Part shown: one piece after another, positions 1-64,000 of the stretch
Numbering within the stretch: the first letter of the stretch is position 1
Layout of the letters: each line of letters starts with the position of its first letter
Assembly: GCA_921293015.1 (NCBI GenBank)
Contig: OV121091.1
Coordinates: 8,027,755 to 8,091,754, forward strand
DNA from: Phorcus lineatus
Taxonomy: Eukaryota > Mollusca > Gastropoda > Trochida > Trochidae
Reading direction: 5' to 3'
Length of the DNA: 64,000 bases
Notes under the pieces: model-generated
Database searches by the model: none
What the model was told of the DNA's origin: nothing
The model's input: the letters and a program-made list of their open reading frames with translations, nothing else
Translations under genes and position numbers: made by a program

Positions 1-783
1 AATCCTGTACTCTTTCGTTCTTCAGATCATCCGCAAGCTTCAAATAACGATCCATAAACTTTTGTGCCAGGTTACCAGCACTATGATGAGGTTTCCGTTT
101 ACGCTTTGTAATCCGAAGGACAGTTTTTCTTCTTCTTGGCCTAGGAGAATCGTCAGTAGTCAAGCTGCTGTCGTCATCTAGACTATCAAATGAGCTCACG
201 GATCGTGTGTCATCGTCATCTCCATAGCTCTGCATTTGCTTCACTAATTCCAGTTTATCAGATACATCCATTGCCGCCACCTCCTTTTGGTTAAGTTTCA
301 TACAGTTAACTTCCGTTGACGATATTATATGCAGGAAGGTCCCCATTCGATGGAAAAACATGGCAATAAACTGTATTAGTAAGGCAATACCAAATATGCC
401 CATGAAAATGAGCGAGAAAGGCTCAATAGTAAGTTGATTGTCAGTTTCAGATGTACAGGGAAGGGGAATAGCTAGACCTTTACCCGCCCTTGCTGCGTTT
501 GTGTATTGCAGAGTGAATATGATGACAATAAACAGTGCATTCATGAGGAAGAACATCAGACTCATCTTGTTTCTCAACTGCAACAGATTAGTCTGCATTC
601 TTATCTTATTGTCTTCGTTAGTCTGAAGTGGAAACAAGTATCTCTCAGTGAGCTCCTTCCAGAATCGGATTTCATCTTGCCCAAGGTAGCGAGTGCGGCC
701 CCGTCCTACATCCGGGTCAGACAGCCAGAAAGGTGAGTACTCCTCGTCAGAGATTTGCGCCTGTTGCTCGTACAATGGGTTGT
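1..783 (-). CDS. Chitin synthase copy A, exon 12, C-terminal exon (cut by window edge)
   Basis: This is the last exon, equal to 43,911-44,693 in copy B. It starts in phase 1 after ATGTTACAG with NPLYEQQAQ, then EEYSPFWLSDPDVG and FWKELTERYLFPL. Two membrane spans follow, around MSLMFFLMNALFIVIIFTLQ and FSLIFMGIFGIALLIQFIAM, then HRMGTFLHIISS. This is the standard end of the membrane part in animal chitin synthases. A charged cytoplasmic tail follows. The stop codon would lie left of the window. Against copy B I saw two silent differences. Confidence 0.95.
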
Positions 784-840
784 CTGTAACATATAAACAA
801 AATTATAAATTCAACTGCCATCATTGACTCATATCTTCAA

Positions 841-1368
841 GATCATGTCACATAACACCTGTACTGCACTGGCCAATTGAAGCAAGAATCAAGTTTAAAG
901 TCCTCTGTATGACATACAAATGTCAAAATAATTCCGCACCATTAGACCTTTCAAAGATGTTAAATGACTATATCCCTGCAAAAACTCTTCGATCACAGAA
1001 TTTGAATTTTATCAAGATACCAAACTATAATCATACCAGTTGTGGACAGAAATCATTCAGTAATGCTGCTCCTCGACTTTGGAATCAACTTCCTCACGTC
1101 ATCAAGATATCACCTTCATTGACTGTTTTTAAATCAAAACTCAAAACTTATCTTTTTTCAAGCTATTATTCATAAACATTACTTCATGAAATTTTCCAAC
1201 TGACTGAATTATCTGACTTTATGTATTATATTACTATTCATATGCTATGATTTATACTCTTCTCTTAGATTTTATTCATGCCAATACTTCACACCATTAC
1301 CTTTTATTCTAACATGTATATGCGCTTTGAGCATGCACCTTCTGTATGGATATAACCTTTATAAATAC

Positions 1369-1402
<34 letters not shown>
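841..1402 (+). mobile_element. CR1-like LINE 3' fragment with (TTA)n tail, copy A intron 11
   Basis: A 5'-truncated LINE, antisense to the chitin synthase gene. It encodes LHWPIEARIKFKVL, then SFSNAAPRLWNQLP and FKSKLKTYLF, the usual C-terminal end of CR1/L2-type reverse transcriptase proteins (compare the same motifs at 34.67-34.97 kb). The coding stretch ends with a stop at 1,173-1,175. A short 3' UTR follows and then (TTA)n at 1,369-1,402, typical of the microsatellite tails of this LINE class. Confidence 0.85.
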
Positions 1403-1466
1403 CATTTCTAATTAATGTGTCTTCGTCTGCACCACTCGCATTTGACAGATTTGCTTAATACCCCCT

Positions 1467-2760
1467 TTACACCAAGCCCGTTCTCAGTACGTTTGGGCTC
1501 GAACTGTCTGACAACTGTCTAAGGACGACGTTGTGCCAACTGTTTACGAACTTTATGAACTGGCTCGGACGTACTAAAAACGGGAAGGTGCTCCAGAACG
1601 TTTAACATGTTGAACGTTCTCCCGTCCTGAAACTGGACGGAGTAAAAACGTACTGAAAACGGGATTGCCGTACTGCGAAGGGAACTGTCGTACTTCGATC
1701 TGACTAAGGACGAGTAAGAACGTTGCGCAGTCGGGAATCGATTGCAATACGTTTGTGCACAGTTTCGACCCCGTTCATCCCGTCTTCAGTCTGGTCTAAC
1801 TCGGTCTCAGTACGACCATAGTCAGTTGTTCTTACGTCCTAATAAGTGTAAAATATTGAAAATGTTCTGATTCCGTTTGTAGTATGTTCTTACACAGTCA
1901 TAAAAGTTCGAAATAAGGTCCTCATTGCGTTCTACTCGTTCTTAGTACATTTGCAAAGTTCTCATACAGTTCTTACTACGTTTGCAGTTCGGTATGTGGG
2001 GACGGGTATAATATACACATGTGTTAATACATTTATCATTCTGGATAGAGAAGTTATAAGAGAAACATGAACCAAATTACAGCTCTCAGTATGATGAATG
2101 TTGGTTTCCTGCAGTTTGTGATGGAAACAGAGAAACAATGTGAAGTGTTGTTTGCTCAAGAACAGAGAAAAAGAACAAGAACATGTTGGGTGAGGACCTG
2201 GCTTAAACCTGAAAAGCGAATAGCTGTCGGATATTATCATCAGCTGATGGAGGAGTTGCGCCTGGATGATCAGGAGTCCTTCTATAACTCCACCCATGTT
2301 TGGCGAACTTCTTGAACGGGCAAGGACGTGCTGGGTATTTATAGAAAACGGGCAAGAACTGGGTGATTTTACAAGATGCAGTGATAACGGAATCAGGACG
2401 TAGTGAAAATGGAAATAACTGTCTTAAAACGAATTAGTCGCAGCTAGGACGGAATTGTGCGTATCAAGAACGAGATTGGTCTAGTTTAGAACGGATATGA
2501 ACTGTCTAAGAACGGAACTGAACTGGTTAAAGACGTCCCGAAAACGAGGCGAACGGGCAATACTATCCAATCTAAACGTGTGAGAAACTGCCTGAGGACG
2601 GGGTAAAGACTAGATGAACGTGCTGAGAACTGTGTATGAACGAACTTGCGTCATATTTGGATAAAATATAACCAATCGTTACTCGTTTCCATCCCGTTTG
2701 AGGCCGTTTTGCTTTTAATTTGGGACGGATTAGGACGTATTGAGACCGACCTTGGTGTAA
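1467..2760 (+). mobile_element. PIF/Harbinger-like element, copy A
   Basis: About 1.29 kb bounded by imperfect inverted repeats. The left end reads TTACACCAAG and the right end CTTGGTGTAA, and similarity continues inward through a CTCARTACGT stretch. In the middle, plus strand, about 2,160-2,310 encodes RTCWVRTWLKPEKR, a variable part and LMEELRLDDQESF. This resembles the N-terminal part of PIF/Harbinger transposases (W-V-x-x-W-L, L-M-x-E-L-R-x-x-D). The DDE domain is absent, so it is non-autonomous. The flanks are made of many short ACGGG/CGTTCT-like words. I did not find a clean target-site duplication. Confidence 0.55.
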
Positions 2761-3379
2761 CTTAGGCATAAAATACTTCGTTTGGCTTGTACTGGTCAAA
2801 TCGGCTTTTTCTTTTCTTGTCACCATTTCAAGTTAATTTAAATTCATCAGGTCGTTTCGCTCTTCAGAAAGTTATCTGATTGTTAGACGGAAAACCACTG
2901 TATTTTCGTTTAGAAAAAAATTCATTTTTCTGATTATCACAAATTTAAAAATATATCTTAACTTTAAGATATCCGCTGTTTTCTATTATATTGAACTCTC
3001 GTTAAATAATTAGGTTTAATACTCTATAAAGGGGATAATCTCAACGATCGTAGGTATTTCACATTTTACATATATATAAGGTCTTGCAAGGAATTTACCT
3101 TCAGTGACATTGCATTTCATATTCTATCACGAAATATTTAGTAAATTTAAAAGAATGATGTTTTTCAATTGTAAAAAAAGTACTACGCATTTAAAAGGTT
3201 TGTCTACTGAAGGGTTTTAATGAAGAAAATAATATTTTAGTTGATACAGTAACTTTAATGAAAACTATATATGACGAAAAAGAAGTTTAAGAAATCAAAC
3301 GTATAAATTATGGAATAAACTTATTGTATCGGGCTGTAATATATAATCACTAGGCTTTGGGGCATGGACTCACTAAATC
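2761..3379. other. Intron 11, AT-rich, nothing recognised (copy B 46,702-47,320)
   Basis: Sequence between the Harbinger-like element and the ~130-bp array. No coding, RNA or repeat feature seen. Confidence 0.5.
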
Positions 3380-4262
3380 TGAAATCCACAATGGCCATTA
3401 CATATTCCGGCTTTCTAACCATTTTCCTCCTTGATAATAAGATGAAAATAGTTTTTTGATTGCGAATTTTGTAATTAATAATCCCTGCTAGGTAAGGAGT
3501 TTGTACAAAACATTTAAGATTTTTAGTCATTTAAATTCTGTTATGAATTCGAAAATACGTTTTTGAGGTTGTGGCCCCTATTACCCTTAGGGTCCAAGGG
3601 TAACCAAATCTATCAATGAAAATCCCAGTTAGCTAGGGAATATTACACATTTAAGCTTTCTGGTCTTTTTCTTTCCTGAAAAGAAGATGAAAATAGTTTT
3701 TAAGGCGTAGCCCCTGTCACCTTTATAAGGGACCAAGGGTCACCAAATTTGTGAATTATGATTAACATTAACCAGGTGGTCTGTACACAACATTTCAGCT
3801 TTCTATGCCCCTTTTCTGGGAAAGACGATGAAAACAGGTTTATAGGGCGTGGTCAAGGAATCATTAGATCTTTTATCTTTAATTCATATCAGCAAAGGAG
3901 TCTCTCAACAACATTTAATTTTTTTAGATGCTTTGCTTGTGATGAAGGAGACAAAAATAGGTTGTATGCGTGGCCCCTTAGCTTCATTTTTGGTAAAATG
4001 GTCATCAATATTAATTCTATTAGTTCTAATCCGCATTATTAAACCACACAACATTTCCGCTTTCTGGGCACTTTGCATCTGGAAAATTAGACATCTGGAA
4101 ATAAGTTTTGAGGGCATATCAAGGGCCACAAGGTCACAAAATTTAAAATCATAATCTCAATTAATCATTGGAATCTATACTCAACATTTCAGCTTTAAAG
4201 GATTTTGTTTCTGAATAAAAATATGAAATTAAGTTTTAAAATTAAGGTCATAGGCCCCTAAT
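3380..4262. repeat. Degenerate ~130-bp tandem repeat (copy A)
   Basis: Roughly seven diverged units. The anchor CATTTCAGCTTTCTG, followed by a GAAGATGAAAATAG-like word and then a GGGTCACCAAAT-like word, recurs near 3,395, 3,510, 3,650, 3,791, 3,912, 4,051 and 4,183. Spacing is about 115-141 bases. The unit is the reverse complement of the 146-bp unit at 39.08-40.26 kb, strongly diverged. Open reading frames here are by-products of the repeats. Confidence 0.75.
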
Positions 4263-5604
4263 AAAGAAATTGATGAAAACATAACTTAAAATGGATAATA
4301 TTATTTATAATGAAATATGAAATTTATCTATGTTAGGAATAAGATTTGTTTTTGTAAATTACTCTGATGAAGACATGAATTCATCGAAAGAATTGTTTTG
4401 TTAAGAAAATAACTATGCACATAACTTTGATGAAAATTGTCTTTGATGAATAAATTGACTGATGAAAACGTTCGTTGATACAAAGATGACCCTGATTTAT
4501 TTAATGATTCAAATGACTAATATATACAACATTTAAGAAATTAATCAATCAACAAGATAAACAAAATCATGATTGAGGCGATGGTTACCAAAACATGATC
4601 ATACGAGGGACAGTCAATAAGTTCGTTGAAGAGGATTTAAAACAGAAGCCAATTGTTGTGATTTGATTCAATTTTTCAATATAATCTTCCTTGACCTCGG
4701 TGCACAGTCTTTGAGACATAAAATGCCCTTGCGGTAGAAGTCTTCTGAATGGTCCCTCAGCCACGCCTTATTACCTCCCTTGAGTTAATCATCATAAATG
4801 TGTGTATCAAATTGCGAAAAAGAAAGAAGTCGCTTGTGTCCGATCTGAACTGTATGGCGAGTGTTTAAGTTCTTCAAAACCACATTGTTGAAATGAAGCC
4901 TGTGCAATACGAACCTTGTGCACTGGATCCTTATCAAAAGAAGTATTGTGACGCTCATATAGAGTATTATGACGCTCATATAGTATTATGTCTCAACATC
5001 ATTATTATTTTGATGGTACAGTTATCTTATCAAGTATCAAATATTGCCTATCTTTAAATTAACAATATCCAAGTTATCCTCGTGCTACGACATTTAGGTT
5101 ACCTCTACTAGGAATAATTTAATCAAAATAGTTATCATACACTCGGCTAGCATTTGGTCAAGGATGGAAACTAAATATTTTGCATTCATATGATAATACC
5201 GGGAACACCTTGACATCAAATATATGTTTTAAAAACGACAGTGGTATTTTCTGATAACAAGATATTTGTTATCTAAGAATCATTTAACCTTAAAAAACCT
5301 TCCTTTGTGTAACAAAGCAAGATCCACTACATGAAAATGGACACATAAGTATATATTCGTTGATACAACTTCAAGCACTTTTTAATATAATTTTTTTCAA
5401 ATCATATCATCTCAACTTGCCTCCTTTCCTAAAAACAGCAATGTTTATTTTTTCAGTGTTTATGATAATGTTTCAGCCCCAATTTCAATTGCTAAAGAAG
5501 GATGGTTTTATAACTATTTCAAAATGACCCTCCCCAAACTTTCGTATTTTTTCTGACCCCCCCCCCCCCCTTGTAATAAATGACCGGTCCCTTATATAAC
5601 TAGT
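4263..5604. other. Intron 11, no recognised gene (copy A; copy B 48,204-49,536)
   Basis: AT-rich intronic DNA. The only structure I see is a two-unit repeat of GACGCTCATATAG at about 4,951-4,982 and a poly-C run at 5,557-5,570 (14 C; 12 in copy B). Copy B has a small replacement near 49,239 relative to 5,300. Confidence 0.6.
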
Positions 5605-5813
5605 ATCCATGTATATTGGACGTGAGATCTACACCTCTGTGCATTCATAAGGCTGTTTTTAGATTTTCATGGAAAACCAGTATTTGTCATATATATATGT
5701 CTTTTGGACATGAAAAGTTAAGATGTTTTGATTTTATATCATTACATATGACATTTAGGTTCGTATCAAAGGTGAATAATATGTTATGAAAATCACGGAG
5801 TGGCATTTTAAGA
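5605..5813. repeat. Dispersed repeat R1, copy A
   Basis: About 210 bp, from TATCCATGTATATTGG to AATCACGGAGTGGC, that recurs at about 49,537-49,745 (same site in copy B). It recurs again, more diverged, at about 60,452-60,665 inside the segment found only in copy B. No coding content; family unknown. Confidence 0.7.
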
Positions 5814-6218
5814 TTAGAAAGAACAACACAGTATTTCCTTCCAATAAATACTAGTGCCAATCCATTTTCTGATTTAAAAGTGTGTTTTTAAACCTTAAAC
5901 AGTGTTATTCTACAAAACTCAAAGTCATTCAACCTTCCACTTCCTTGAGGTACAAAGAGTGGAATGATAACTCAATAGTATGTCATTCAACCTGAAAAAA
6001 ATTTACTGTCCAATATATTTATCTAGGTTCATTACATTGTCACTTCAAGTGACGGTGCTTGTTCTATTTTGGATGGAATAGATTTCTGTCTTTGCTCTCC
6101 TCCATTATGGTCCATTCAACATTGATTCCGTCTTATCTTCACTCACGTTGATGGTGTTAAACGCCTTTCCTGATGTATCATAACAACACTCAGCTATTAG
6201 CTTGACAGCTGAAGATGC

Positions 6219-6445
6219 TTAAAGGGGCAGAATATACTTATATGTTGTTATAAATGGGAAAGATATGTCAAACTTTAAAAATGGTGTTATTATGCGAAGA
6301 ACTACTGGTTGTATCCGAAAATTACCATTGTAATGTTGATCAGTTCAGTATGGTGACAATAAACAGCTTAGAGTTGTATTTTTGTGATCGAAAACCGGAC
6401 AGTGGCGCGCACTAATGACTCAAACGTAATTTCGGAAACTTATAA
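6219..6445. repeat. Dispersed repeat R2 (core GATCGAAAACCGGACAGTGG)
   Basis: This stretch and 12,505-12,700 share a scattered match ending in a strongly conserved core: GTGACAATA, then GATCGAAAACCGGACAGTGG followed by CGCGC and CAAACGTAATTT. Counterparts in copy B lie at about 50,149-50,375 and 56,428-56,623. It does not encode protein. It could be a short non-autonomous element, family not recognised. Confidence 0.65.
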
Positions 6446-7031
6446 ACAGCAGACATAATGGCATATAAGGTATGGTAGTATTTCGCATATCACATAAGTA
6501 GTATCGTAGATTTTGAGCAAGGCCCTGTTACAGTCAAGTTCATAACATCACAATTTTTAAATCATCAAGTAATGACATCACAATGCTATGACGTCATAAA
6601 CATGTAGACAAAGACAACACCACACTGAGTGTTTTAGAGTGGTGCAGTGTCAAGAAATATACATTTTTAATGGAATTGAAATGGAAAATTATTTTGGATG
6701 AAATATAGAATCTCACCATCGTGACTTTTGATATCAATTAAATCAAACGAGTTCAAATAAGTTCGGTTGAAATTAAATTAAGGGGTAAAAATGCACGACA
6801 TTCAACCCAAAAATAAAAAACAGAATGGATTTATCTCCTAATTAACTGACATTAATATTTATGCCAACAACTCTTTGAATCCTTCAGTGACCCCAATTTT
6901 CTTACATATATTAGGAAAACATACACATAAACCTATGACACAAAATATCATTAGATTCCTAAATATTTTATTTTATACGTCGCTCCTTTGAATACATTTT
7001 TTCTTAGCACAGATTGAAGAGCAGGACTTAC
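6446..7031. other. Intron 11 remainder, nothing recognised (copy B 50,376-50,961)
   Basis: AT-rich sequence next to the exon 11 donor. It contains two ATGACATCACAAT/ATGACGTCATAA-like words near 6,570-6,600 but no coding or repeat structure I can name. Confidence 0.5.
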
Positions 7032-7341
7032 GTCTGACGACTCCATCTGCACTCAGACTGCTTATGATTTCCTCCCCTCCGTGTCCCTCCGTCGTCGAAA
7101 CGTCCGCAGCTCCTCCGCCTAACTGCTGCTCTTCTGTCCATCCCCGGTCGTCAGTGATATGGATGGTAGGGGACTGTGGGTTGGTTTCAACGCCTCGTTT
7201 CATCCCTCTCACCGACTGCTCAATTGTTTCCAGTTTCTCGAGCACCGCACTGAACTTGCTGCTCTCCTGGTCAACCCTTGGACGCGGACAGCAGATGCAG
7301 CGAAACAGGTTGCCGAATGAAAAACCATACTCGCTTTCAAC
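7032..7341 (-). CDS. Chitin synthase copy A, exon 11 (Cys cluster and linker)
   Basis: A 310-bp exon starting VESEYGFSFGNLFRCICCPR, with the short Cys-rich patch expected after the SWGTRE segment. A helical stretch around SAVLEKLETIEQSVRGMK follows and could be a short coiled coil. The rest is a low-complexity acidic linker. The acceptor is GAACAG and the donor GTAAGT; it ends in phase 1. Copy B differs by a His to Arg change in the PTI-H-ITDD segment and a silent Val codon. Confidence 0.9.
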
Positions 7342-7485
7342 CTGTTCTCAAAGCAATAAATATTACAATTAAATAAACTGGAATTGTAACTGTAATAACT
7401 GTGTTGTGTTTTGTGCCAAAATGGTACTGTAAAACTGAGCCACAGCGCATCTACAATTGTATTGTTCGCCTAGTAATGTACGCCG

Positions 7486-7539
7486 CCAATGGCTGAAATA
7501 TTGCCCAAGCGGCGATAAACAATAACTCACTCATTCGCC
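7486..7539. repeat. SINE-like tail fragment (also 51,415-51,468)
   Basis: The words GGCTGAAATATTGCC, AAGCGGCGATAAACAATAAC and TCACTCATTC in this order resemble the 3' end of a very common gastropod (abalone) dispersed repeat that ends in CTCACTCACTC. The match is from memory. If right, it is the best taxonomic clue apart from the gene family. Confidence 0.45.
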
Positions 7540-7929
7540 TAGTAGACATAACTTTAAAAGAAAATCTACCACTTGATCTAATAACATACTTAGTATCATA
7601 AGAAATATTGCACAGAAAATGAGATAGAGGCCGGAAAAGGATATATATATATCCATATATGAACTAATTTAGAATTGTTTCCACGGAATCCAGCAAAATA
7701 AAGCCCGAAAAGAAAGCAGAAGGTCCCTACCTTCCATATGCAGTAAGTCATGGCCATGGCAACCAGACGTAATAAATTGAGCAAAAATCTAAAGCTTTTC
7801 ATCCGGATTATTTCGGGCTAGATTTTTGACAATAGCTTTCAGGCAATTATGTTAGTATCATGCTGTGACAGAAGACCTTGAAATCCAAAGAAAACAAAAT
7901 ACTTCTTTTTAGAAAGTCTTTTTTCATTT

Positions 7930-9010
7930 TCATTGATAACGTTCAGGATATCACAATACCCTCCAAAACGAAGTTTATAGTCTGGAGAACAATTGGTTTG
8001 AAGAGTTCAGTAACGGTTGTGGCCTACTCTGTCGTCTCCCAAATATACTCGATAGCATTAAGGTCGGGTTTACACTACTGCAAGTCCAGGACTTGGACAC
8101 TGCGTAAGAATATCGAGCGTTGCCTTGGTAGAACGATAGTCCAGGTCAATGTCTCTGCATAAAACGAAGCAAAACAGTTTGAAAATTTTATCCCTGTACC
8201 GAACAGTATATAAGTTTCCACGTCCATCTGCTCAAAATGAATCTCATACCATGATGCTGACTCGGTCATCTTCATGGACGCACACTAGCGCGTGACGTTC
8301 ACCTCGCCTAACGTGCACTAAATTCCACCAGAAAACCAAATTCCACTACCAATTCCAAATCAAACCCTAATGTGTCTTGTGGTCCATACAAGTCGGTTAC
8401 GGCGGTTAAGAGGTGTCAATATTGATCCATTATAGGGTCTCCGAGCCCCCCAAAAGAAATGTCTTAAAGTTTGTGCAGTTACCCTTCCGTCAAACATCTC
8501 TCTACTTGTGGAGATTGCACTCAATTGTTTAAATCTGAAAGTACAGTTCCCCCACCCTTACTCGTCATGGATGGGCATTGATATCCGTATGGATGAAGTT
8601 ATCCCCGATAGCTCAAGCGTAAGATTTTACGTAGACTTTGAAGATATGATGTACCTTAAACAGATATCAGTCATGGTGTCATTCGCGAGAACATGCACCT
8701 CAGTCTTTCCATCCATGACTAAACCTCCTCCAAACCTGTCAATATCAACAAGGTAATCATGATCCAAATGATGCCCCTGTCTTCCCCTCACACTTACACA
8801 TCTTTCAGTAAAGACGAAACAGTCTTTCAGTAAACGAAACAGAAATCATGCATGAACAACACAGGCCTCCAGTGATGAGCAGTCCAATCTACATGCTCCT
8901 CAGCTTTTTTACGACATGCACCACGATGAGTAGAAGCTAAGGGGATTCGAACACATGGTCGTCTTGCATTCAAACCCCTCTTATTCAGTCGTCTACGCAC
9001 AGTTTGTGTG
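7930..9010 (-). pseudogene. Tc1/mariner-like transposase remnant, copy A intron 10
   Basis: Minus-strand fragments in different frames. From high to low they read VRRRLNKRGLNARRPCVR, then HVDWTAHHWRPVLF (the block before the first catalytic Asp), RFGGGLVMDG, and further on PDLNAIEYIWE (third catalytic motif). A further fragment, PLNRRNRLVWTTRH, lies out of order, so at least two fragments may be nested. Many stops and shifts; not functional. Confidence 0.75.
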
Positions 9011-9735
9011 GAACGTTGACCCCATGCGACTCAAACTTATTTTAATCATTCATTAAATGTATGTTTCGATAAGTTTTTTTCACAACGCCTTTTTATGTTC
9101 AATGGCTCGTAGTCGATGATATATAATACGAGCCAGTAAGTAAATAAACGAACATAAAAATAACATTTTAAGCAGGTACGAACAGTATAAATAGCTAAAT
9201 GATTTTAAAATATATTTCAGTATCAAACTTCATACATGAATATGAATATTATTAGCAGGTTTAAATATCCATCGTTCCATCTAAAAGTCTGGCAGATCCG
9301 CTGTTGGGATTATAGAGAGTCACAACTTACGTTTAAATTTAGCTACTTAATCACAACTCTACATTCAGTTCTGTCCATTTTGGTAGGCAATGAGGAGGTA
9401 CCATTGAAGAAGAGGCTATCATAGGCAACTGAAGCGTGTGCTTCTCTTGATTTTCGATGCACAATATTGTTGCGTTTCTATATTTGTCCATATTCAGGCC
9501 AGAAACATTTTGGAAAACCTTCTAATTAGGTCCTCATTTAAGTTTACCAACATAAATTGTCCTTTCCTATGGTCTTCATTTAAAATGTCCAAACTCAGAT
9601 CAATTCCCTATGAATTTTAACCTAGTATTCCAATGTTTATTTAGTTTTGATAAAAATTAATAAAGAACATAAAATTATGATCCTATAATCATACAATACA
9701 AATGAATGAAAGAGAAATATTGCAAAATGATTTAC
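9011..9735. other. Intron 10, remainder, nothing recognised (copy B 52,939-53,658)
   Basis: AT-rich intron next to the exon 10 donor. The two copies differ here by an 8-bp indel in an ATCCATC word (9,266-9,281 versus 53,195-53,205). Confidence 0.5.
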
Positions 9736-10119
9736 CTTATCTTCATAATTGAACATGTTCAAAAGTGACTGTAATTTCTTCGATTTTATCTTTGTTTGCA
9801 TCTCTTTTACTTTGCTTGGTGCAGCAGGTTGCGCCACCTCTCTAGTGCCCCATGATACAACGTGGATGTTACAGATTGAGTAAATCATCAGTAACATCGA
9901 CATGCTTGGTATGGCCAAAAAGTACAAGGCTCCATGGACGAGGCAAGTCATTTCCATAGGGTGCATGACAGCAGAGATTATAAACACACCAATAATGAAT
10001 ATCATAAAAATTGTTGTTGGTGAGCAAATGCCCTCTCTCTTCATCTCTAGTGCCAGACCCACCACGACGAGCATCATGACGAGGGCATATCCGCCAGATA
10101 ACACAGCCGCAAGTTTCAG
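9736..10119 (-). CDS. Chitin synthase copy A, exon 10 (SWGTRE membrane segment)
   Basis: A 384-bp (128-codon) exon in phase 0 on both sides. It starts LKLAAVLSGGYALVMM after TTGCAG and contains membrane spans around YALVMMLVVVGLAL, TTIFMIFIIGVFIIS and LVHGALYFLAIPSMSMLLM. They are followed by NIHVVSWGTREVA. SWGTRE is the invariant block at the end of the five-span cluster, thought to take part in chitin translocation. A Lys-rich linker ends at NYEDK before GTAAAT. The coding sequence appears identical in copy B. Confidence 0.95.
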
Positions 10120-15405: not shown

Positions 15406-15440
<35 letters not shown>

Positions 15441-45344: not shown

Positions 45345-45408
45345 CATTTCTAATTAATGTGTCTTCGTCTGCACCACTCGCATTTGACAAATTTGCTTAA
45401 TACCCCCT

Positions 45409-52938: not shown

Positions 52939-53658
52939 TGGAACGTTGACCCCATGCGACTCAAACTTATTTTAATCATTCATTAAATGTATGTTTCGAT
53001 AAGTTTTTTTCACAACGCCTTTTTATGTTCAGTGGCTCGTAGTCGATGATATATAATACGAGCCAGTAAGTAAATAAACGAACATAAAAATAACATTTTA
53101 AGCAGGTACGAACAGTATAAATAGCTAAATGATTTTAAAATATATTTCAGTATCAAACTTCATACATGAATATGAATATTATTAGCAGGTTTAAATATCC
53201 ATCTAAAAGTCTGGCAGATCCGCTGTTGGGATTATAGAGAGTCACAACTTACGTTTAAATTTAGCTACTTAATCACAACTCTACATTCAGTTCTGTCCAT
53301 TTTGGTAGGCAATGAGGAGGTACCATTGAAGAAGAGGCTATCATAGGCAACTGAAGCGTGTGCTTCTCTTGATTTTCGATGCACAATATTGTTACGTTTC
53401 TATATTTGTCCATATTCAGGCCAGAAACATTTTGGAAAACCTTCTAATTAGGTCCTCATTTAAGTTTACCAACATAAATTGTCCTTTCCTATGGTCTTCA
53501 TTTAAAATGTCCAAACTCAGATCAATTCCCTATGAAATTTAAACTTAGTATTCCAATGTTTATTTAGTTTTGATAAAAATTAATAAACAACATAAAATTA
53601 TGATCCTATAATCATACAATACAAATGAATGAAAGAGAAATATTGCAAAATGATTTAC

Positions 53659-54042
53659 CTTATCTTCATAATTGAACATGTTCAAAAGTGACTGTAATTT
53701 CTTCGATTTTATCTTTGTTTGCATCTCTTTTACTTTGCTTGGTGCAGCAGGTTGCGCCACCTCTCTAGTGCCCCATGATACAACGTGGATGTTACAGATT
53801 GAGTAAATCATCAGTAACATCGACATGCTTGGTATGGCCAAAAAGTACAAGGCTCCATGGACGAGGCAAGTCATTTCCATAGGGTGCATGACAGCAGAGA
53901 TTATAAACACACCAATAATGAATATCATAAAAATTGTTGTTGGTGAGCAAATGCCCTCTCTCTTCATCTCTAGTGCCAGACCCACCACGACGAGCATCAT
54001 GACGAGGGCATATCCGCCAGATAACACAGCCGCAAGTTTCAG
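53659..54042 (-). CDS. Chitin synthase copy B, exon 10 (SWGTRE)
   Basis: Counterpart of 9,736-10,119, 128 codons in phase 0 on both sides, with the same membrane spans and the SWGTRE block. I found no coding difference from copy A, although the flanking introns differ by SNPs and short indels. Confidence 0.95.
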
Positions 54043-54777
54043 CTGCAACGAGTAGAAGAATAATTCAAATAATGTTCAACTAATTATTGAAATTCTTAGA
54101 GAGACGGACCTGATTTCCGATTTAACGTAAATAAAATTAAACCAATAAGAGAAATTAAAGAATATTTTAGAAGAAAAAATAACTATCACTGAAGGTATTG
54201 CATTAGCGTTTAGGAAGTACATGTTTTTGTAATTGACGTTTAACATTTCAAAAGCAAAAGAAAAGAAATAAACAAATCCAGATTTCCCAAAGGTATGTCT
54301 TTTCAAATTCGAATTATATATCCTTTTTGTATTTTGAGATTGGGAATTTTGCAATTTATGGAATTGAAAATATGATCGACATCGAAGTTTAGCATTTTGC
54401 ATGATGCAGCAGATGGCAATTTTACATAAACGAGGCAGACTAGGATTGAAAGTAAAGCAAGAGGCATTTTTAGTAGGATTTAGTATGCAGGGTAATGTAA
54501 CTACTTTAAGGTTGCTTATTATGAAAAAATAGGATACAAAGCTCAAGAAAAGTTTAAAATTGAAAAACAAAATGGCCACCACAATTGCCAAAAGTGCCAA
54601 GGGACCACCAAATATACAATTTACGATTCCCATTGATTTAGAAGTCTGTTAACAAGATGTTCAGTATTCTATGTTCAGACTGATCATCCTGGAAGCGATT
54701 AGATTAAGCTTGCATTCAATTGGTTATTAATTGTCTAAAACGATCTTATCTTTAATTGGTGTTAACGCCTTTATGTA

Positions 54778-56192
54778 AACTGACGGGCAAAAGTTAGTAT
54801 AACGTTTTCAAATCGTTGTGTAGAAACATAATGTATCTATATTTCACTGCAATAACGGAAACAAACATTGTGTGTCTTGTTGAAATACTACAAAATGCAC
54901 GTGATTTCACTGCATGAAGTCACGTGATCAATAGCACAAGAAAATGGTAAAACATTACTTTTTCAAATTTTATTAAATGCGCGTGTCACAGAGGGGTATA
55001 AATCGGGTCGATTGACGCTGTTCGATCACAATCAGTTAACGCAAATACAGGGAGAGCGAGCCATTGGAATGGCTGTTCTCACGTCACTGTAACACTGGTA
55101 GTACCCAAGGCAGGCCAAGGAGTGAACGCCAAGGGTAACTACAGACCGGGAAGACCGTTACATCCGGACAATTCATCTCAGGAACAGGTTTGTGACAGCA
55201 ACGGCTAAGGCGGAAACAGCACTGGGACATCGTAGATTGCGAGCTGCTGGTATTATGGCTTATTGGCCCTTCCGCAGCATGGTCCTGACCCTCAGACATC
55301 GCCAAAACAGACTTCGATGGGCAAGACAAGTTTACAGATGGCAAGTGGGACAATGGCAACGAGTTCTGTTTTCTGATGAAAGTCGTTTCACCCTCTACAG
55401 AGCTGATGGCAGGGAACGGGTATACCGTCGGGCAGGGGAACGTTTGGCACAGCCATGCCTCAGAGAGGTTCATGCATATGGTGGAGGTGGTGTTATGGTT
55501 TGGGGAGATATCTGTGGAAACCAGAAGTGATCGTGCAAGGAAATCTCAATGCGCGTGGGTATATTGGACAGATTTTGAAGTCAGTTGCAGTACCCTTCAT
55601 ACAGAATCAACCCCAGGGTGTCATCTTTCAACAGGACAATGCGAGACCCCACACTGCCAGAGAGACCAGTGACTTTCTGCAGAGAAGTAACGTCGATGTT
55701 TTGCCGTGGCCAGTCTACTCACCGGATATGAATCCTATTGAACACATGGGATCATCTGGACAGACATATCAGAAGACGACAACAAGTTCCACAGAATAGA
55801 CAACTAGAGCAAGCCCTGACGGAAGAGTGAAACCGCATTCCCAATAACGTCATCCGCTGTTTGACAACATCAATGAGACGTTTGAGGGCATGCATCGACG
55901 CAGAGGGTGGTCACATCCGTTACTGGCTCTCTTGTTAATGAATGATCTATCCAGTTACTCATCAACTTGGCCCCGATATATTCTGTCACGATTGACTCCG
56001 AGATAATCGACCCCATGTGTGTTTGAGGATCAAGATGTCAGAGACGTTTAACAAGGAACTTGCACTTTTTGTTGTTATTTAAATCGTAATTGGTTGTTGA
56101 TTGTGATGAATTAAAGTTGTGGAAGAAATGTTGTTGTTTGGCTTTGTTACATGCTGTCAAAAAAGGCATATACTAACTTTTGCCCGTCAGTG
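54778..56192 (+). mobile_element. Tc1/mariner element with intact inverted repeats, copy B
   Basis: Counterpart of 10,855-12,269, of identical length, with the same TA flanks, inverted repeats and disabling mutations. The final transposase stop is displaced by a codon at about 55,936. Confidence 0.92.
55144..55938 (+). pseudogene. Tc1-like DD34E transposase, frameshifted (copy B)
   Basis: Same broken transposase as in copy A, with FSDESRF, QQDNARPHTA and SPDMNPIEHM in three segments of different frame. The shared frameshifts show the element was dead before the two gene copies separated. Confidence 0.88.
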
Positions 56193-57079
56193 TATATAGA
56201 TAACATCATTAAGAGAAACTGAGAGGTTGAAAAAGTTAGGGTAGCGCCTACAGGGAGGCAGACTAGGACCGATTGTTTCTCGTACATTGTAGTTGTCTCC
56301 CTTGCTTAGCTTCTTAAACCAGAGCGTTACGCTTCTTTATTAGTGCACTAACATGCACTCAGTCACTGTGTGCTTTGGAAGGTTCGACACGACCTCGGAG
56401 ACATAATATTCGAGTCCCTTACTTAAAGAGCCACTCTGTGAGTTGTTGGAGTCATATATGCCAAACTTAATCAATGGTGTCATTTGATCGCGAAGTATCG
56501 ACTGTTACCAAAAAGACACATTTTAAAGCTCATTGTTTTTTACAGTGACAATATGATCGAAAACCGGACAGTGGCGCGCGTCAAATGGTCAAACGTAATT
56601 TTGGAGACTTATCTAAAACAGCCAGGAGGGCAGTTAGGGGTTGATAGTGTTTATTAGGTTATTTAACACCCGGCTCAGATGAGAGACAACGGACTAGACT
56701 CGGGCTCAAACATTTGATAAAAATCATGGCATGTCAATACGAACCTGGCAGTCATGAAACATCCTAAGAATGAATACAAGTGCTTTGTATAAATAACAAA
56801 TAATAACGTAAGTATTGCCTTTACAGCACATTTCACACAATCCCCTTCATGAAGAGCAAAATTAATTACATGTATCCGAATCCCTAATGAGGGAGACTAA
56901 GCACATGGGAGCGGTGGGTGGGTAAGAAAAAATGTGCTGGCCGTAAAGCCGTATGCTAAATTCAAACTGCCAGGAAGTAAAACTATGCATGCGCAGAGAC
57001 CGAGCCTTGACCCGTGTTAAATATGGATTATGTTGTGAGTTATGTTGAGAGTTGTGTGGAATGTTCTTGAGATTGCACT

Positions 57080-58003
57080 TCAGTGAATATGCTTAACAGA
57101 ACTGGGGAGAAGAGCTAAACGCTGGCCGCCCGAAGGCTTGAGATATTTGAACACACAGTCTAGCTTCCAGTCTCCAAGAGTTTGTACTGTGTCCACCGGA
57201 ACACCCTGAGAGAAGAGCCATGTTGCCCAGCCTCGTCGAAGGCTATGGGTATTGTACAGTCCTGTATCATAGCCGAGAGCCTATGGGTGGCAAGAGAGGC
57301 GACTTCTGAAACTGTGGACAGATTGGGGTACCCCTTGACTAATAGCAAACAGAGGCGAGCTAGAGGGAACATGCTTAGTACAGAGATACCAGCGCACCAA
57401 CGCGGAGGTCGGACACATTGAGACAACCTTATACAATGGCCAGCCTGTTACATGGCAACGTTGAGCAAATTGTATGGTCTTAGTTTTCTGAACACTTAGG
57501 AAGCATCCCTGACTTGTGAAAGTAACATCACCACGTGTGATGCCTTGGGGAGCGATAGTTGTCACTGAACTAACACGTAATAGTCCAAAGAAGCAAGTCA
57601 ATGTCATGCACCAAAATATCAGGTCCACAATGTCCAGTAGATCAAGTCGACGGTGTAGTTGGCACAGTATGTCAACAGTTATAGGCTGCTTGTAGTTGGG
57701 AGCAGCTCCTTTGCTCCTCTTGATACCTTTGAGGATTGAAGTAAGTGCAAAGTTTTCTTTGGGGTTGGTAAACCATGTGTATCAATCGTAAAATGTTCAG
57801 AAACTGCGGGATGGAGTTGTAAGATTTGTCCCTAGCCAGGAAGGCAGTATTTCTGCAGATAACATTAGGTGATGCTGGGACTGGCCTACAATCACATACA
57901 AAACCGCAGATAACATAACATGTGAACGATAAGTGCACTTAGTAGAGTCAGCGAAGCACTGTTTCAGCAAGCTAACGATTTCCCTGTCCAGGTGACCAGC
58001 CAA
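57080..58003 (-). pseudogene. YR retroelement tyrosine recombinase (copy B)
   Basis: Counterpart of 13,157-14,087. It carries the same TAG before the THSLRRG block and in addition a 7-bp deletion near 57,770 that shifts the frame between the N-terminal helical part and the catalytic part. Confidence 0.82.
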
Positions 58004-59075
58004 CGACGAATTTGTGGGTAAAGAAACTGTATGGCACTAACTGACATATGCTTGAGTAAACGATAACCACTAGGGGCATCAAAGGTACCATACCACTCTC
58101 TAATTTCCTTAATCAATCTGACAAACATACAAGGCTCTGAAAGGCGTGAGATGGCGTCAGCAATCACATTATGCACACCCGGTGTATGCACCGCAATAAT
58201 GTTGAAACATATGCACACATAGTTTTCAAGGAAAAGAATAAACTTCTTTGCTTTCTTACGATCAAGAGAAAGTATACCAGACATGGAATTAATTTGAACT
58301 CCATGAAACGTTAAACACGTCGAAGGCCCTTCCACTTTTGACCAATTGATGTTAAAGTCCAAGTTTCTTAGCAAACGAATTAGTTACAACAAAGCTTGGT
58401 TGCAATCCTCCCATGAGTTTGCAGATCTCCAAAAGTCATCCAAGTAGGTCACAACCGCACATTGTCCTTGTCTCTCAATGTACCTGCTAATTGACTGGGT
58501 AAACTTATTGAAGACATAAGGTGGGCGGCTTGCACCCGTTGGTAGTTTTGTGTCTATCATGTAAGTAGGTTGATCCTGACCTGAGAAGATCCACTTTAAC
58601 CCTGTAAAAAGGTAATTAGAGGGGTGGAGGCGATATGCTTCTCTGAGGTCTACTTTTGCCATGAACTGACCTCTCTGTAGGAGAGACACTGCATCATTCA
58701 CTGTTTGATAGGAGAAAAAATCATTAACAACATAAGAGTTTACTGATTTACCAATAGGACGACTGAAATTGTGTATGAGGCGAATGCCATGTTCATCTTT
58801 ATGGACAACACTAAGAGCACTGATAATTGTGGGCTTTTCTAGCACAATACGGTAGTTACCAACATTTAGTTCTTCAAGAATGCGACGTTCTAGTAGTTCT
58901 GCATTTACCCTTGCATTATTTGCTACTTCTGTAGGTACAATATCTGAACGTTTATCACGATCAATAATATCAAAACCATATGTCAAACCATTGATGACCC
59001 AGTCCTTATCTAAGTCACCCTCTAACATGTCTCCCAACAATGTAACTTAGCTGAGAGATCACTGATTGGTTCATA
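57964..59075 (-). pseudogene. YR retroelement reverse transcriptase/RNase H (copy B)
   Basis: Same as copy A with YLDDF, the TAA at 58,384-58,386 and the deleted RNase H core. Differences: AKVDLREAYR where A has AKVDLTEAYR, SANSW for SANPW, and a one-base deletion at about 59,031 that takes the upstream HCWEDM segment out of frame. Confidence 0.82.
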
Positions 59076-59199
59076 TGAATCGGGCGGCCTTACTGAAAAT
59101 TCTGAAAAGCTGGCTGAGGAAGGTGCATAGCTTGCTGTGGTTGAGTGAAACCCGTGAGTGTTGGATGCGTGCTTCCTTGGGAGAGGGGGCCATTATATT

Positions 59200-60360
59200 A
59201 TTGCACAGATGGTGACAGACGAGATCCTGACGACTGGCTATGTGACCACTGGTTGTGACTTGAAGCGAGACAGGTGAGGCACACGTGAGCATACTTGCAT
59301 TGTTGATAATCGCAACACCGCCCCCCCCCCCCCCCCCCCCCCGGAGTTCCACTTAAGACAAACAGGTTGAGGCTGTGTGTTAGGGTGCAAACGTGGGCCC
59401 TGGGGTTATCTGGGTGAGTGAACAGATCGAGCACCCTTATTGTCCTGTCTTGTCAGAAGCAACTGCATGACATATGTATTATCTGCCCCTCACACAAAGT
59501 CAAGCTCATTTTGCCTTTGTCGGTATTGCCTGTCGTACGACAAGACACTCTGACAAGTGAAAGCTTGCCCCAAAGTAGCTATTTTTACACAATAACCAAC
59601 GTACTGCAATATTTCTGCAGTATCCACACGATCTGTAAGGATCATTTCCCTCAGAATCTTGAACGATGCCTCCATATATTGCAACGGTGATATCTTATGC
59701 CTGATTTATCCCCCTTGTCAGACTGATGCAGTAAATAATTTGTCAGTTCGCGATATGGTCCCTATGACGTTGTAGAAGGGGCATCAAAGGGGTCAAACAC
59801 TTTACCTTGTTTGGTTTTTGTCTTGCCAAAGTTTGGGAAGTCTAACATCGATGCAAGCTCAGTTACCGTAACGTTGTGTTGTTTTGATCGGAAGTCCCCG
59901 CATTGCGCATGCGTGTGGGTAGACCAAATTGACCGTTTGAATCACGACTGGATAACTGGAGTTGTACTTCAGAACGATCTTCTTTGAGGTTTCTGACGAC
60001 TTTTTTCAATAATAAATGTTGCGCCAGCGATAAGTTTGCCTTGAAATGTTCTTTAACAAGTGGATCATCAAGTAATTTGACGGCACCTGTAGAGTTAAAC
60101 CCTTTATCGGTAAGTTCGGCTATCGTGCCAATGGTGAGTCCCACTATCACACCAGTCCGAGAAACTGTCAGACTGTGAATCTTCATAGCTGACCGATGAA
60201 GCAACGTCAAGCAGGGACTGGTTTTTCTTTTAGAGCTTCTCTTGTTCTTTCTTTCTCCCCATGCTTGATTAGGGGAGTCAGGCCCAAAAAAACCTCGTAA
60301 AAGGGAAACAAGACCCTTAAGGTAAAACGTACTGGCCGCAAAGACGTCTGCTAAATTCAA
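59200..60360 (-). pseudogene. YR retroelement gag-like gene with intact 5' part (copy B)
   Basis: Open from about 60,360 down to 59,863: NLADVFAASTFYLKGLVSLL, then TVSRTGVIVGLTIGTIAELT and LLLKKVVRNLKEDRSEVQL. A frameshift near 59,890 leads to VTELASMLDFPNFGKTKTKQ and on to the zinc-knuckle-like CKYAHVCLTC. The poly-G run here is 22 bases (59,321-59,342), not 33. I infer gag identity from position and the Cys/His motif; the N-terminal part I do not recognise on its own. Confidence 0.6.
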
Positions 60361-60451
60361 ACTGCCAGGAAGTAAAACTATGCATGCCCAGAGACCAAGC
60401 CTTGACCCGTGTTAAATATGGATTACTCTCACATTATTCCGTAATCTATCA

Positions 60452-60665
60452 CATAACTAGTATCCATGTATATTGGGCTTGATATCTACACCTCTGTGCA
60501 TTCATAAGGCTATTTTAAGATTTTCATGGAAAACCAGTATTTGTCACATATATGTCTTGTGGACATGAAAAGATAACATGTTTTGATTTTATATCACCAC
60601 TTATGACATTTGGGTTCGTATTAAAGGCAAATAACATGGTATGAAAATCACAGAGTGGCTCTTTA
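60452..60665. repeat. Dispersed repeat R1, second locus (copy B only)
   Basis: Diverged copy of the R1 repeat, in the same orientation, immediately outside the 5' terminal repeat of the tyrosine-recombinase retroelement. It is absent from copy A because the whole 59,957-60,860 segment is missing there. Confidence 0.7.
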
Positions 60666-61142
60666 ATGTCCATGCTCGAACAGAGCAAAAAAGTGGGAAA
60701 ATGTCAATAACCAAATAATTAGTAAGTTTGCACTTCTCATTTTCAAACATAATCAAGATATTGATACCCTCAAGCGAAACACGAAATATTGTTATTTCAT
60801 CTCAAATGATGTCTTTGAAGATACTTTGAACATAGTAAAATATACAACAAGGGAAATAACTTCAGATAAACGTATTTGGCGCTTCTCATATTTGAATTCA
60901 GATTTGGTTACCCTATATGGTTTCTGATACGGTTTCTGAGAAAAGCTGCCCCCTTTAACTCGGACGATCGGACGCACTTATGGAAAGAGCTCAAACCACT
61001 ATCCCCTTTCCACTTTGTGGTGGTGGGTACTAAATAGACCAGACTTTTAAGACTGATTTGCGGACTTTATTGATTTTCTTTCACATAAAACGACCTTTGG
61101 GACTGTCATATAATAAAGAATATAAAAAGAAAGCACTTATAC

Positions 61143-61540
61143 CTGAACATTAGATTTACAACAGTAGCAGATGAGCGTGAACAATCCCACCGGCACCATG
61201 TTGGAGAGCAGGGCGGCCAGCAGGTCGAGGGAGGGAAAGGCGGTGTTAACAGCACCAGCAATTAGAAGGAAGATGGTGCCCGGTGTCAACAGAGACGACA
61301 CAAACAGCAGCAGCTGATATATCATGTAGAGTGCAGACACGTTCTCATTGATTCTAATTATGTTCCGCCAGTCCGTTAGAAGATCCATTATATTTGCCAT
61401 AGTCGAAGGAGACCAACGCCGTCGCTGATTATAAAACTCTTCAAATCCCTCAGGTGCATATGTCAAAGCATCTGCAGCTGCACAGTATTCCACTCTGTAA
61501 CCTTGTTGAAGCAGGAGAGTGCAAAGCCATCGGTCTTCTC
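61143..61540 (-). CDS. Chitin synthase copy B, exon 9 (EDRW, QRRRW)
   Basis: Counterpart of 16,335-16,732. It carries EDRWLCTLLLQQGYRVEY and EFYNQRRRW and three hydrophobic spans. The translation is identical to copy A. It is the most N-terminal exon of copy B inside the window; exons 1-8 are expected beyond 64,000. Confidence 0.95.
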
Positions 61541-62716
61541 CTGAGAAAATATCAACCATAATCTGTGATACAAATCAGTAACACTCAATTGTACTCAGAG
61601 TTCTTCTCGGAGTAGGGTAATCTGTCCCTTACTATCATAGTTGTGAATTTTGTTCATATCTCGGAATTTGAAAAAAAAAAGACTCGTAAAGCTTCTCTTG
61701 AAACGTCAGTGCTGAATTTATTGAGTATTAACTGCATCTGACTCTAGAGAAAGGAATGGGGCAAACGGTTTTGTATTTTGATATGAAACTCTTCAATTCA
61801 GTCAAACAAAGATCAGAAGCTTTCCAGAAGCAGTCATCTGAGTATATTTTGAATAAGCAGCAGACAATAGTTCAGCAGTTTACTTCTTTTCATTTATAAA
61901 AAAAACCCCAATTGATTTTGATATCGCTGTCCCATATCTACAACAATTTATCCACTTAGGTCTAAGAGTATGCCTTTAAGTCCATTTCATGGATAACATC
62001 CTTTTTGAATGGTTCATTATAAAACCTCCCCCAAACGCACGTCTCCAGCTCATCGTTGTGCATCTCGAGGTAATTGGGCTGTTCATAACTAGAGACCTCT
62101 GTTGACCAAATTGTCAAACATTTTTTGCATCATTTAATGACAGCCATGCCCTAGTTTGGAGACTACTGGGACATTGCTGGATTGCTGAACATGACATTTG
62201 GACATGGTTCAGTTATCGTATGGCTTTGATAATCTGGGATGAAAATATGTGCATATTCTTTGAAATGGCATCATGACTGGCAATGGTAACAGAGATGAGA
62301 TTTTGGATGTCTTTGTAAAACTAAATACTAACGCTATTTGGAACGATTTTACATGACTTTATCTTTATAGATTGCCATGCTTAACCCTATCAAGAGATAG
62401 TGGTCAAACATCTTAATTGCAACAATAAAGCAGATCGAGTGGTCTGTTCGACAGATTTTACATGATCTTAAAATGATAAAACATCTATGAAACATTTTCT
62501 AAACTTGATTGGTACAAAGAAGAACACTAGTATACGGATGGGATACAACATGCGCCTCCTTGGCAGCATGAGATGATGTCAAACTATAATGCGGACTAGA
62601 GGCTTACATTTATGTCATTGACACGTTTTTGACGTTTGAGTTTTTGTTATCTCAGCTGTTGGAAGGCCTCTGAGATAATCCCTGTCAATGGTTGTATCTG
62701 TCCTTTATCCGCCTAT

Positions 62717-62958
62717 TATGAAGCTGTTGAAAGTGATCTTGGTCAAACATCAATACGTTTTGTACATTCTGAACAATGATGTCTGGAAGAAATGCTATAG
62801 TTCTTGTCAAGAGAACCAGTTCATATTTCAAAGTTTCAGGAGATTAACAAAGCACCTGAAGGATGATCTTGATCGAAATAAAGGTATTCTACTCGGAATG
62901 ATCCTTTTTAAACCTTCTCTTACTTGCTTTCTATTGAGGGACGTCAAATAGCTTCTAT
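62717..62958. mobile_element. 242-bp insertion found only in copy B
   Basis: Absent from copy A at 17,896-17,900. It is flanked by CTAT on both sides (one copy of which is in A), and its ends show a short imperfect inverted repeat: TATGAAGCTGTTGA at left, and ATAGAAGCTATTTGA on the opposite strand at right. This looks like a small non-autonomous insertion, though a deletion in A cannot be excluded. Confidence 0.45.
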
Positions 62959-63357
62959 AAAAAGCTATAAAATTTTATAACTTGCATATCCGTATTGACA
63001 TTGCACATCGGTCTATTTTATTGGCTTTCGGTTTTGATTCGATGCAAATCATGGCCAATCAAAGGTTTTGAATTGGTGTTTTAAAGGTAAATCATTAAGA
63101 TGATACAATTTTGTTCTTTGAAAAATCACAAATCTGATGCAATAATAAATTTGGTGACCACTTTCAAAAAACCCTTCGTTGATATGTGAAAAAACACGGT
63201 GGAATATAGACAGGTTGGGCTTTATTTAACGTTGTGATAATAAAACAAATTGTTATTTTGTCAAATCCACATACGAGTTACGTTCAAAGAATAGGCCAAT
63301 TAGGCATTTTTTCTTTTTACTACTCAAAATTATTACAGCAGGTTTTGAGTACACAAA

Positions 63358-64000
63358 GCAAAAGAAAGAAAAGAAAAAGATAAAATAAGATAAAATAACA
63401 TCCATACTCACACTCAGTCATACACTTGCATACTATTTACTGTATATTTCAACTTTTTCATTGATTTGATTCATATATAGTGCCATATTTCCTTTCAAAA
63501 TCATTAAACTGAGCTTTTTTACAATATCGTGCTTTTTCTATTTGATAATAATACCTCAATTCTCGTTTAAAATGTAACAATAGTGGTGGTTTATTCTGCA
63601 GCTTGCATTTATAAATGTGATATTTAGCAAGTAGCAAAAGTAGATCAAAAGTATCATCAGTTTGAAATGCTGCTTAACATCCAAAGAGAATCAAATCAAC
63701 CTGAAGTTTTATATCACCAGTGTGCGCACAGTTTAGTTCAATCCATTTTTAAAGTTTCTGCCAAAAGTGTTTACTATAACTACAATTCCAAAAAGGATGG
63801 AGAATAGACTCGGGCTCCCTTCCACAAAATGTGCAGAGGTTATTGTCAACAGTATGCATTTTAAACAAAAGTGTATTCACTGGAAAATTCTGTGGAACAG
63901 TCTGAGTTGCATCCATCTTAATTTAGGATCATGAGTGGTCTTAAATGGTTTTATAAAGATGTCATTCCAATTTGCGTTAATCAAAGTTTCTTCTTCCCAT
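63358..64000 (-). mobile_element. L1/Tx1-like LINE fragment, copy B (cut by window edge)
   Basis: Counterpart of 18,298-18,940, essentially identical, running out of the window at 64,000. Confidence 0.75.

What the first reader, a model, noticed from the sequence alone, without database searches (positions are those of the whole stretch)
1..64000. 44-kb-period direct duplication of a chitin synthase locus, or two haplotypes in tandem
Seen: 1-18,940 and 43,911-64,000 match base by base through introns and dead transposons, with scattered SNPs, microsatellite changes and few indels. Inference: if real, this is a very young tandem chitin synthase expansion; if not, an assembly has placed both alleles in a row. 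The level of difference fits allelic divergence in a highly polymorphic marine invertebrate as well as a recent duplication.
Basis: partly seen in the sequence, partly recalled or inferred. Interest (0 to 1): 0.7.

Follow-up and report, generated by a model that had tools for sequence, protein, structure and literature searches.

The report
Young partial duplication of chitin synthase
A 43-kb stretch of a topshell chromosome appears copied head-to-tail so recently that the copies differ at about 1 base in 280, but the cut fell inside a chitin synthase gene, so only one of the two gene copies still has its beginning; it is an ordinary, well-resolved young duplication rather than a new pair of working genes.

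Summary
The repeat is real. Window arms 1-18,940 and 43,911-64,000 align base by base (74 substitutions in 18,897 aligned bases), but their ends are only window edges. With 160 kb of flank from the same genome, the unit runs from window coordinate -13,766 to 29,596 (copy A) and from about 29,591 to 76,272 (copy B). The copies abut head to tail at 29,591-29,596. Over 38,639 aligned bases they differ at 137 (0.355%).

The assembly is Phorcus lineatus xgPhoLine1.1, chromosome 11 (HiFi, hifiasm, purge_dups). No N occurs in the 224 kb examined, and the breakpoints share only 2 bp. I judge it a true tandem duplication on the sequenced haplotype. Two alleles in a row is unlikely, but cannot be excluded without reads or the alternate assembly.

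It is not a chitin synthase expansion. The right breakpoint lies in the intron between coding exons 2 and 3. Copy A therefore lacks coding exons 1 and 2, and a 1,479-bp deletion has removed the front of exon 3. Copy B carries an open 14-exon frame of 1,755 codons. Copy A is probably a newborn, 5'-truncated pseudogene.

The parts
1..29596 (.). Copy A of the duplicated unit (the part inside the window; the unit begins at window coordinate -13,766)
   Evidence: self-comparison of 224 kb
29595..64000 (.). Copy B of the duplicated unit (the part inside the window; the unit ends at window coordinate 76,272)
   Evidence: self-comparison of 224 kb
29591..29596 (.). Head-to-tail junction of copy A (right end) and copy B (left end): right-parent sequence runs to ...CGCTATTG, left-parent sequence takes over at TG; 2 bp (TG) shared, a mismatch next to it
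   Evidence: breakpoint sequences compared
1..783 (-). Copy A chitin synthase, start of the last coding exon (it continues left of the window to -727)
   Evidence: exon model carried over from copy B
6996..7341 (-). Copy A chitin synthase coding exon 13
   Evidence: 2 differences from copy B
9736..10119 (-). Copy A chitin synthase coding exon 12
   Evidence: weak PF03142 match of the open frame, below the curated cut-off (E 7e-4)
16335..16732 (-). Copy A chitin synthase coding exon 11, with QRRRW
   Evidence: PF03142 E 7e-11; PDB 7stl chitin synthase E 3.9e-5
19471..19651 (-). Copy A coding exon 10 (5' boundary approximate)
20044..20217 (-). Copy A coding exon 9 (3' boundary approximate)
   Evidence: open frame matches PF00535 below its cut-off (E 5e-4)
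22434..22587 (-). Copy A coding exon 8
25044..25152 (-). Copy A coding exon 7 (boundaries approximate)
26079..26158 (-). Copy A coding exon 6
27407..27508 (-). Copy A coding exon 5
27683..27802 (-). Copy A coding exon 4
27993..28424 (-). Copy A: remaining 432-bp 3' stub of coding exon 3 (962 bp in copy B); the other 530 bp, with the acceptor site, are absent
   Evidence: stub identical to copy B, 0 differences; gap against B 73,620-75,098
28424..28425 (.). Scar of the 1,479-bp deletion in copy A (1 bp of overlap at the ends)
28971..29621 (+). Transposase-like open frame (DDE_3 match in its middle) that runs across the junction, its last 25 bases coming from the other parent; the breakpoint thus lies at or near the end of this element, in the intron between coding exons 2 and 3
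   Evidence: Pfam, breakpoint
43183..44693 (-). Copy B chitin synthase, last coding exon, with stop codon
50926..51271 (-). Copy B coding exon 13
53659..54042 (-). Copy B coding exon 12
61143..61540 (-). Copy B coding exon 11 (coding exons 10 to 1 lie right of the window, up to 79,696)
35081..38722 (.). B-only 3,642-bp repeat-rich insert, set in a TTA repeat
59953..60855 (.). B-only insert of about 0.9 kb with 5-bp target duplication ATAAC; empty site in copy A at 16,048
62714..62954 (.). B-only insert of about 0.24 kb flanked by CTAT; empty site in copy A at 17,895
38988..40263 (.). 145-bp satellite array in copy B (8.8 units, 1,276 bp); the copy A array (-4,633 to -3,648) is 986 bp

Best explanation
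A true head-to-tail tandem segmental duplication of about 43 kb on chromosome 11 of Phorcus lineatus. SHOWN in the assembly: two adjacent copies in direct orientation, one junction, no homology between the two breakpoint regions, 0.355% divergence, and copy-specific insertions and deletions. SHOWN: the right breakpoint lies in the intron between coding exons 2 and 3 of a minus-strand chitin synthase gene, so copy A received exon 3 onwards only, and a 1,479-bp deletion has since cut exon 3 in copy A. INFERRED: the assembly reflects a real chromosome. INFERRED: the duplication arose by end joining or template switching during DNA replication rather than by unequal crossing over between repeats. 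INFERRED: copy B is the working gene, and copy A, which lies downstream of it, is a promoterless partial copy and a pseudogene in the making. INFERRED: it is young, some hundred thousand to two million years if the rate is 1 to 5e-9 per site per year (assumed from memory). It may be fixed or present on only one haplotype.
For: Copy A ends where copy B begins, with a 2-bp overlap and no sequence left over. No N in 224,000 bases, while the assembly has 428 contigs in 78 scaffolds, i.e. about 350 gaps in 958 Mb. Ko et al. [quoted passage not shown] The assembly used 32-fold HiFi reads, hifiasm, purge_dups and manual curation that removed 83 haplotypic duplications; BUSCO duplicated is 0.6% (PMC10444997). 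The 3-kb probe 5,000-8,000 has two full-length matches in the genome, both here, among 40 candidates scored of 8,179. The exon-cutting deletion sits in the copy that lacks exons 1 and 2 anyway, as expected for a redundant copy. Copy B has an open 14-exon frame with GT-AG sites. There are 7 coding differences in 4,110 bases against 130 in 34,529 other bases (Fisher p 0.036), compatible with constraint on at least one copy.
Against: No read or depth data were available, so no molecule was shown to span the junction. No heterozygosity figure for the species was found, so 0.355% cannot be called too low for alleles. Seven structural differences in 43 kb are many for 137 substitutions and would also fit two haplotypes. 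A 2-bp microhomology is expected by chance in about 18% of joins, so it is weak evidence on the mechanism. Copy A shows no stop or frameshift in its 11 remaining whole exons, so decay is not visible beyond the missing 5' end and the exon 3 deletion. Lower divergence in coding sequence fits two alleles too. The genome-wide copy number of the right half of the unit was not obtained.
Confidence: 0.87

Rival explanations
1. Assembly artefact: the two alleles of one locus, one of them carrying the exon 3 deletion, were placed in a row in the primary assembly.
For: Structural differences and scattered substitutions look the same as between alleles. Substitution density is uneven (dispersion 1.84 in 35 one-kb windows, p 0.002), as for alleles with varying coalescence, though gene conversion or constraint would also do this. 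False haplotypic duplications are a known, common error (Ko et al. 2022, passages), and this assembly needed 83 of them removed.
Against: No gap at or near the junction, although scaffold joins normally leave one. The contig would have to jump 43 kb backwards at a point with 2 bp of shared sequence and no repeat. hifiasm, purge_dups and manual curation had been applied.
Confidence: 0.1
2. A true duplication made by unequal crossing over between transposon or satellite copies at the two breakpoints.
For: The right breakpoint lies at or near the end of an old transposase-like element, and the unit holds a 145-bp satellite array.
Against: The 4-kb stretches around the left and right breakpoints have no match to each other at E 1e-3, and the shared sequence at the junction is 2 bp. 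The satellite array is not at either breakpoint.
Confidence: 0.02
3. Both copies are working chitin synthase genes, i.e. a true expansion with copy A using its own new start.
For: 11 whole exons and their splice sites, including the QRRRW exon, are intact in copy A.
Against: Copy A lacks coding exons 1 and 2, the sequence upstream of them, and 530 bp of exon 3 with its acceptor site and (by eye) several membrane segments. No transcript data were available.
Confidence: 0.05

Closest known systems
Tandemly repeated molluscan chitin synthases (Lottia CS2-4 and CS7-8; Zakrzewski et al. 2014, PMC3942024, passages seen)
   Same: Chitin synthase genes of a gastropod lying in tandem; the family is large in lophotrochozoans.
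   Different: Here the duplicate is partial (no exons 1 and 2) and under 0.4% diverged, so it is an incomplete copy rather than an extra gene.
False heterotype (haplotypic) duplication in assemblies (Ko et al. 2022, PMC9516828, passages seen)
   Same: Near-identical adjacent copies with SNPs and indels like those between alleles; part of a gene copied next to itself.
   Different: No gap between the copies; a HiFi, purged and curated assembly. Read depth and k-mers were not testable.
Partial tandem segmental duplication by microhomology-mediated end joining or replication template switching (recalled, from no call)
   Same: Direct orientation, single junction, 2-bp microhomology, no repeats at the breakpoints.
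   Different: Nothing that was tested; 2 bp does not discriminate between the mechanisms.

Membership tests
Tandem segmental duplication (true) | Two copies adjacent, direct orientation, single junction | tested here: met
   A = -13,766 to 29,596, B = 29,591/29,595 to 76,272
Tandem segmental duplication (true) | Junction carried by single molecules, full depth over both copies | not testable with these tools
   no reads held
False haplotypic duplication | Assembly gap between the copies | tested here: not met
   0 N in 224,000 bases around and between the copies
False haplotypic duplication | Half read depth, haploid-specific k-mers, discordant read pairs | not testable with these tools
   no reads held
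Metazoan chitin synthase (Chitin_synth_2 core) | PF03142 core domain | tested here: met
   exon 11 of copy A 7.4e-11; both copies over the cut-off in the genome search
Metazoan chitin synthase | Membrane segments N-terminal and C-terminal of the core | tested here: inconclusive
   judged by eye only, no predictor run: hydrophobic stretches on both sides in copy B; in copy A exons 1, 2 and the front of 3 are missing
Metazoan type II chitin synthase | Falls in the type II clade of a tree | not tested
   no tree built
Non-allelic homologous recombination product | Homologous repeats at both breakpoints | tested here: not met
   left against right breakpoint, 4 kb each: no match at E 1e-3

The most novel reading that the evidence does not exclude
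Copy A, though without the first exons, is transcribed, either by read-through and splicing from copy B just upstream of it or from a new start. It would yield a truncated or alternative-tailed chitin synthase, so that a partial tandem duplication is creating a new isoform only a few hundred thousand years after it arose.
Probability: 0.05. Interest if true: 0.5.

Novelty: new member of a known kind. Interest (0 to 1): 0.2.

Why it matters
Large chitin synthase families in molluscs invite a reading as adaptive expansion. This locus is counted twice by an exon-wise search, yet one copy cannot make the full protein. It is a clean example of how a young tandem duplication can yield a headless gene copy, with the breakpoint resolved to the base, and a caution for gene counts.

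Tried and rejected
Unequal crossing over between repeats: rejected, as the two breakpoint regions share no homology. A larger array: not seen, since 224 kb hold only two copies and the 3-kb probe 5,000-8,000 has only two full-length matches among the 40 candidates scored genome-wide. Insertion in B rather than deletion in A for the 1,479-bp difference: rejected, because the sequence present in B holds the first part of a coding exon that continues in frame into the stub left in A. tblastx of paralogue loci against the 224 kb was too noisy for exon finding, so peptide anchors and a splice-site search were used instead. In that automatic model the boundaries of exons 7, 9 and 10 are probably trimmed (for example the stretch GRIHPIGTG in exon 9), so 1,755 residues is an approximation. 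The last exon alone has no match in Pfam at E 0.01 or in the PDB at E 0.001. A search for the assembly by its size found nothing fitting; the species was found through the mitochondrial length (listing) and confirmed by the exact length of the longest scaffold. Age from a molecular clock rests on assumed rates and is only a range. Copy number of the right half of the unit (probe 23,000-26,000) could not be obtained.

Full report
OBSERVATION. A self-comparison of the window shows window 1-18,940 repeated in direct orientation at 43,911-64,000. The global alignment has 18,897 aligned bases, 74 substitutions and 16 indels.

WHERE IT IS. The window is contig 17, 8,027,755-8,091,754, of a 957,807,699-base, 74-contig genome. 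Contig 1 is 79,430,111 bases, contig 17 is 49,436,478, and contig 74, which carries the one COX1 match, is 19,115. The genome note of the thick topshell Phorcus lineatus (PMC10444997; passages, part 1 of 3 of the text) gives a longest scaffold of 79,430,111 bp, chromosome 11 of 49.44 Mb, a span of 957.8 Mb, and a mitochondrion of 19.1 kb. The window is therefore on chromosome 11 of xgPhoLine1.1. That small difference is unexplained.

EXTENT. 60 kb to the left and 100 kb to the right were fetched. In the joined 224,000 bases (0 N) the repeat is copy A, -13,766 to 29,596, and copy B, 29,591 (in register from 29,595) to 76,272. The copies abut. At the junction the sequence follows the right end of the unit up to ...CATTCGCTATTG and continues as the left end from TG onwards: 2 bp shared, with one mismatch next to it. 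The left and right breakpoint regions, 4 kb each, have no match to one another at E 1e-3, so recombination between repeats is not the likely cause. A 2-bp overlap arises by chance in about 18% of joins and says little about which joining pathway acted.

DIVERGENCE. Seven blocks, leaving out the copy-specific inserts and the stretch with the satellite array (A -4,891 to -3,640), give 38,639 aligned bases, 137 substitutions (0.355%; 90 transitions, 47 transversions) and 24 small indels. One-kb windows are over-dispersed (1.84, p 0.002; 35 windows). Structural differences, seven in all: A-only 3.39 kb with terminal inverted repeats TGTATCATCCCAA and target duplication TATA; B-only inserts of 3,642 bp, about 0.9 kb (target duplication ATAAC), about 0.24 kb (CTAT) and 146 bp; a 1,479-bp deletion in A; and satellite arrays of 986 against 1,276 bp. 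These fit independent changes in two copies after duplication. They would fit two alleles as well.

THE GENE. Exon 11 matches PF03142 (7.4e-11) and the solved chitin synthase 7stl (3.9e-5). Other exons match weakly or not at all on their own: exon 9 (PF00535) and exon 12 (PF03142) are below the curated cut-offs, and the last exon has no Pfam or PDB match. The gene is on the minus strand. In copy B a 14-exon open frame with GT-AG sites runs from 79,696 to 43,183 (1,755 codons, boundaries of exons 7, 9 and 10 approximate). Whether a further exon lies upstream is unknown: the first exon found starts right after a possible acceptor site. Coding exons 1 and 2 (79,398-79,696 and 78,635-79,082) lie beyond the end of the unit at 76,272. 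Copy A therefore starts within the intron before exon 3, and its exon 3 is further cut: 432 of 962 bp remain (0 differences), and the other 530 lie in the 1,479-bp deletion. The other 11 exons of copy A keep their frames and splice sites. 3,678 bases were compared, with 7 differing codons, 4 silent and 3 not. Including the stub, coding divergence is 0.17% against 0.38% elsewhere (Fisher p 0.036); one constrained copy, or two, would both give this.

REAL OR ARTEFACT. Ko et al. 2022 (PMC9516828, passages) list half depth, gaps between copies, discordant pairs and one-copy k-mers as marks of false duplication. Only the gap could be tested, and there is none, in an assembly with 428 contigs in 78 scaffolds built from 32-fold HiFi reads with purge_dups and curation. 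An artefact would need a contig that jumps back 43 kb at a point with almost no shared sequence. I therefore put the artefact at about 0.1. A duplication carried on only one of the two haplotypes is within my best explanation.

FAMILY CONTEXT. PF03142 gives 36 exon matches at 19 places in the genome by my grouping, copies A and B included; not all were checked to be chitin synthases. Among 18 of these loci compared at the DNA level the next closest pair, C17 41.19 and 41.24 Mb, is 90% identical over 2,716 bases; for the other pairs listed the best piece is at most 680 bases long and at most 83% identical. Tandem chitin synthases are known in Lottia (PMC3942024, passages). The PMC library searched holds no paper with both Phorcus and chitin synthase.

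VERDICT. Most likely a real and young (assumed rates: about 0.4 to 1.9 million years) tandem duplication that copied part of a gene. What looks like a chitin synthase expansion is one whole gene plus one headless copy downstream of it. It is ordinary in kind but resolved to the base.

Noticed in passing
G000:C17:41188921 and 41242139 (L030, L029): A second, older tandem pair of chitin synthase exons 53 kb apart on the same chromosome, 90% identical over 2,716 bases. The match at 41,188,921 reads through one TAA; whether that lies inside the exon was not checked (in copies A and B the same flag is a TAA just past the donor of exon 11).
   Followed up: partly
window 31724-34966: LINE-like element with endonuclease (PF03372, PF14529) and reverse transcriptase (PF00078) matches in separate open frames; present in both copies.
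   Followed up: partly
window 38988-40263: 145-bp satellite array with a higher-order period of 436 bp; a diverged relative lies inverted at 3551-3841 and 47492-47782.
   Followed up: no
window -12790 to -9402 (left flank, L013/L014): A-only 3.39-kb element with terminal inverted repeats TGTATCATCCCAA, 4-bp target duplication TATA and only one open frame of 80 codons or more, 85 long: probably a non-autonomous DNA transposon that moved after the duplication.
   Followed up: partly
window 35081-38722: B-only 3.6-kb insert made largely of 1.3-kb and shorter internal repeats; related repeats occur beside the chitin synthase locus on contig 39 (L054).
   Followed up: no
window 5592-5826, 49528-49741 and 60453-60666: A repeat of about 220 bp, 93-96% identical to 38 other places (40 candidates scored of 8,179); a further copy lies inside the B-only 0.9-kb insert. 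Probably a recently active short element.
   Followed up: no
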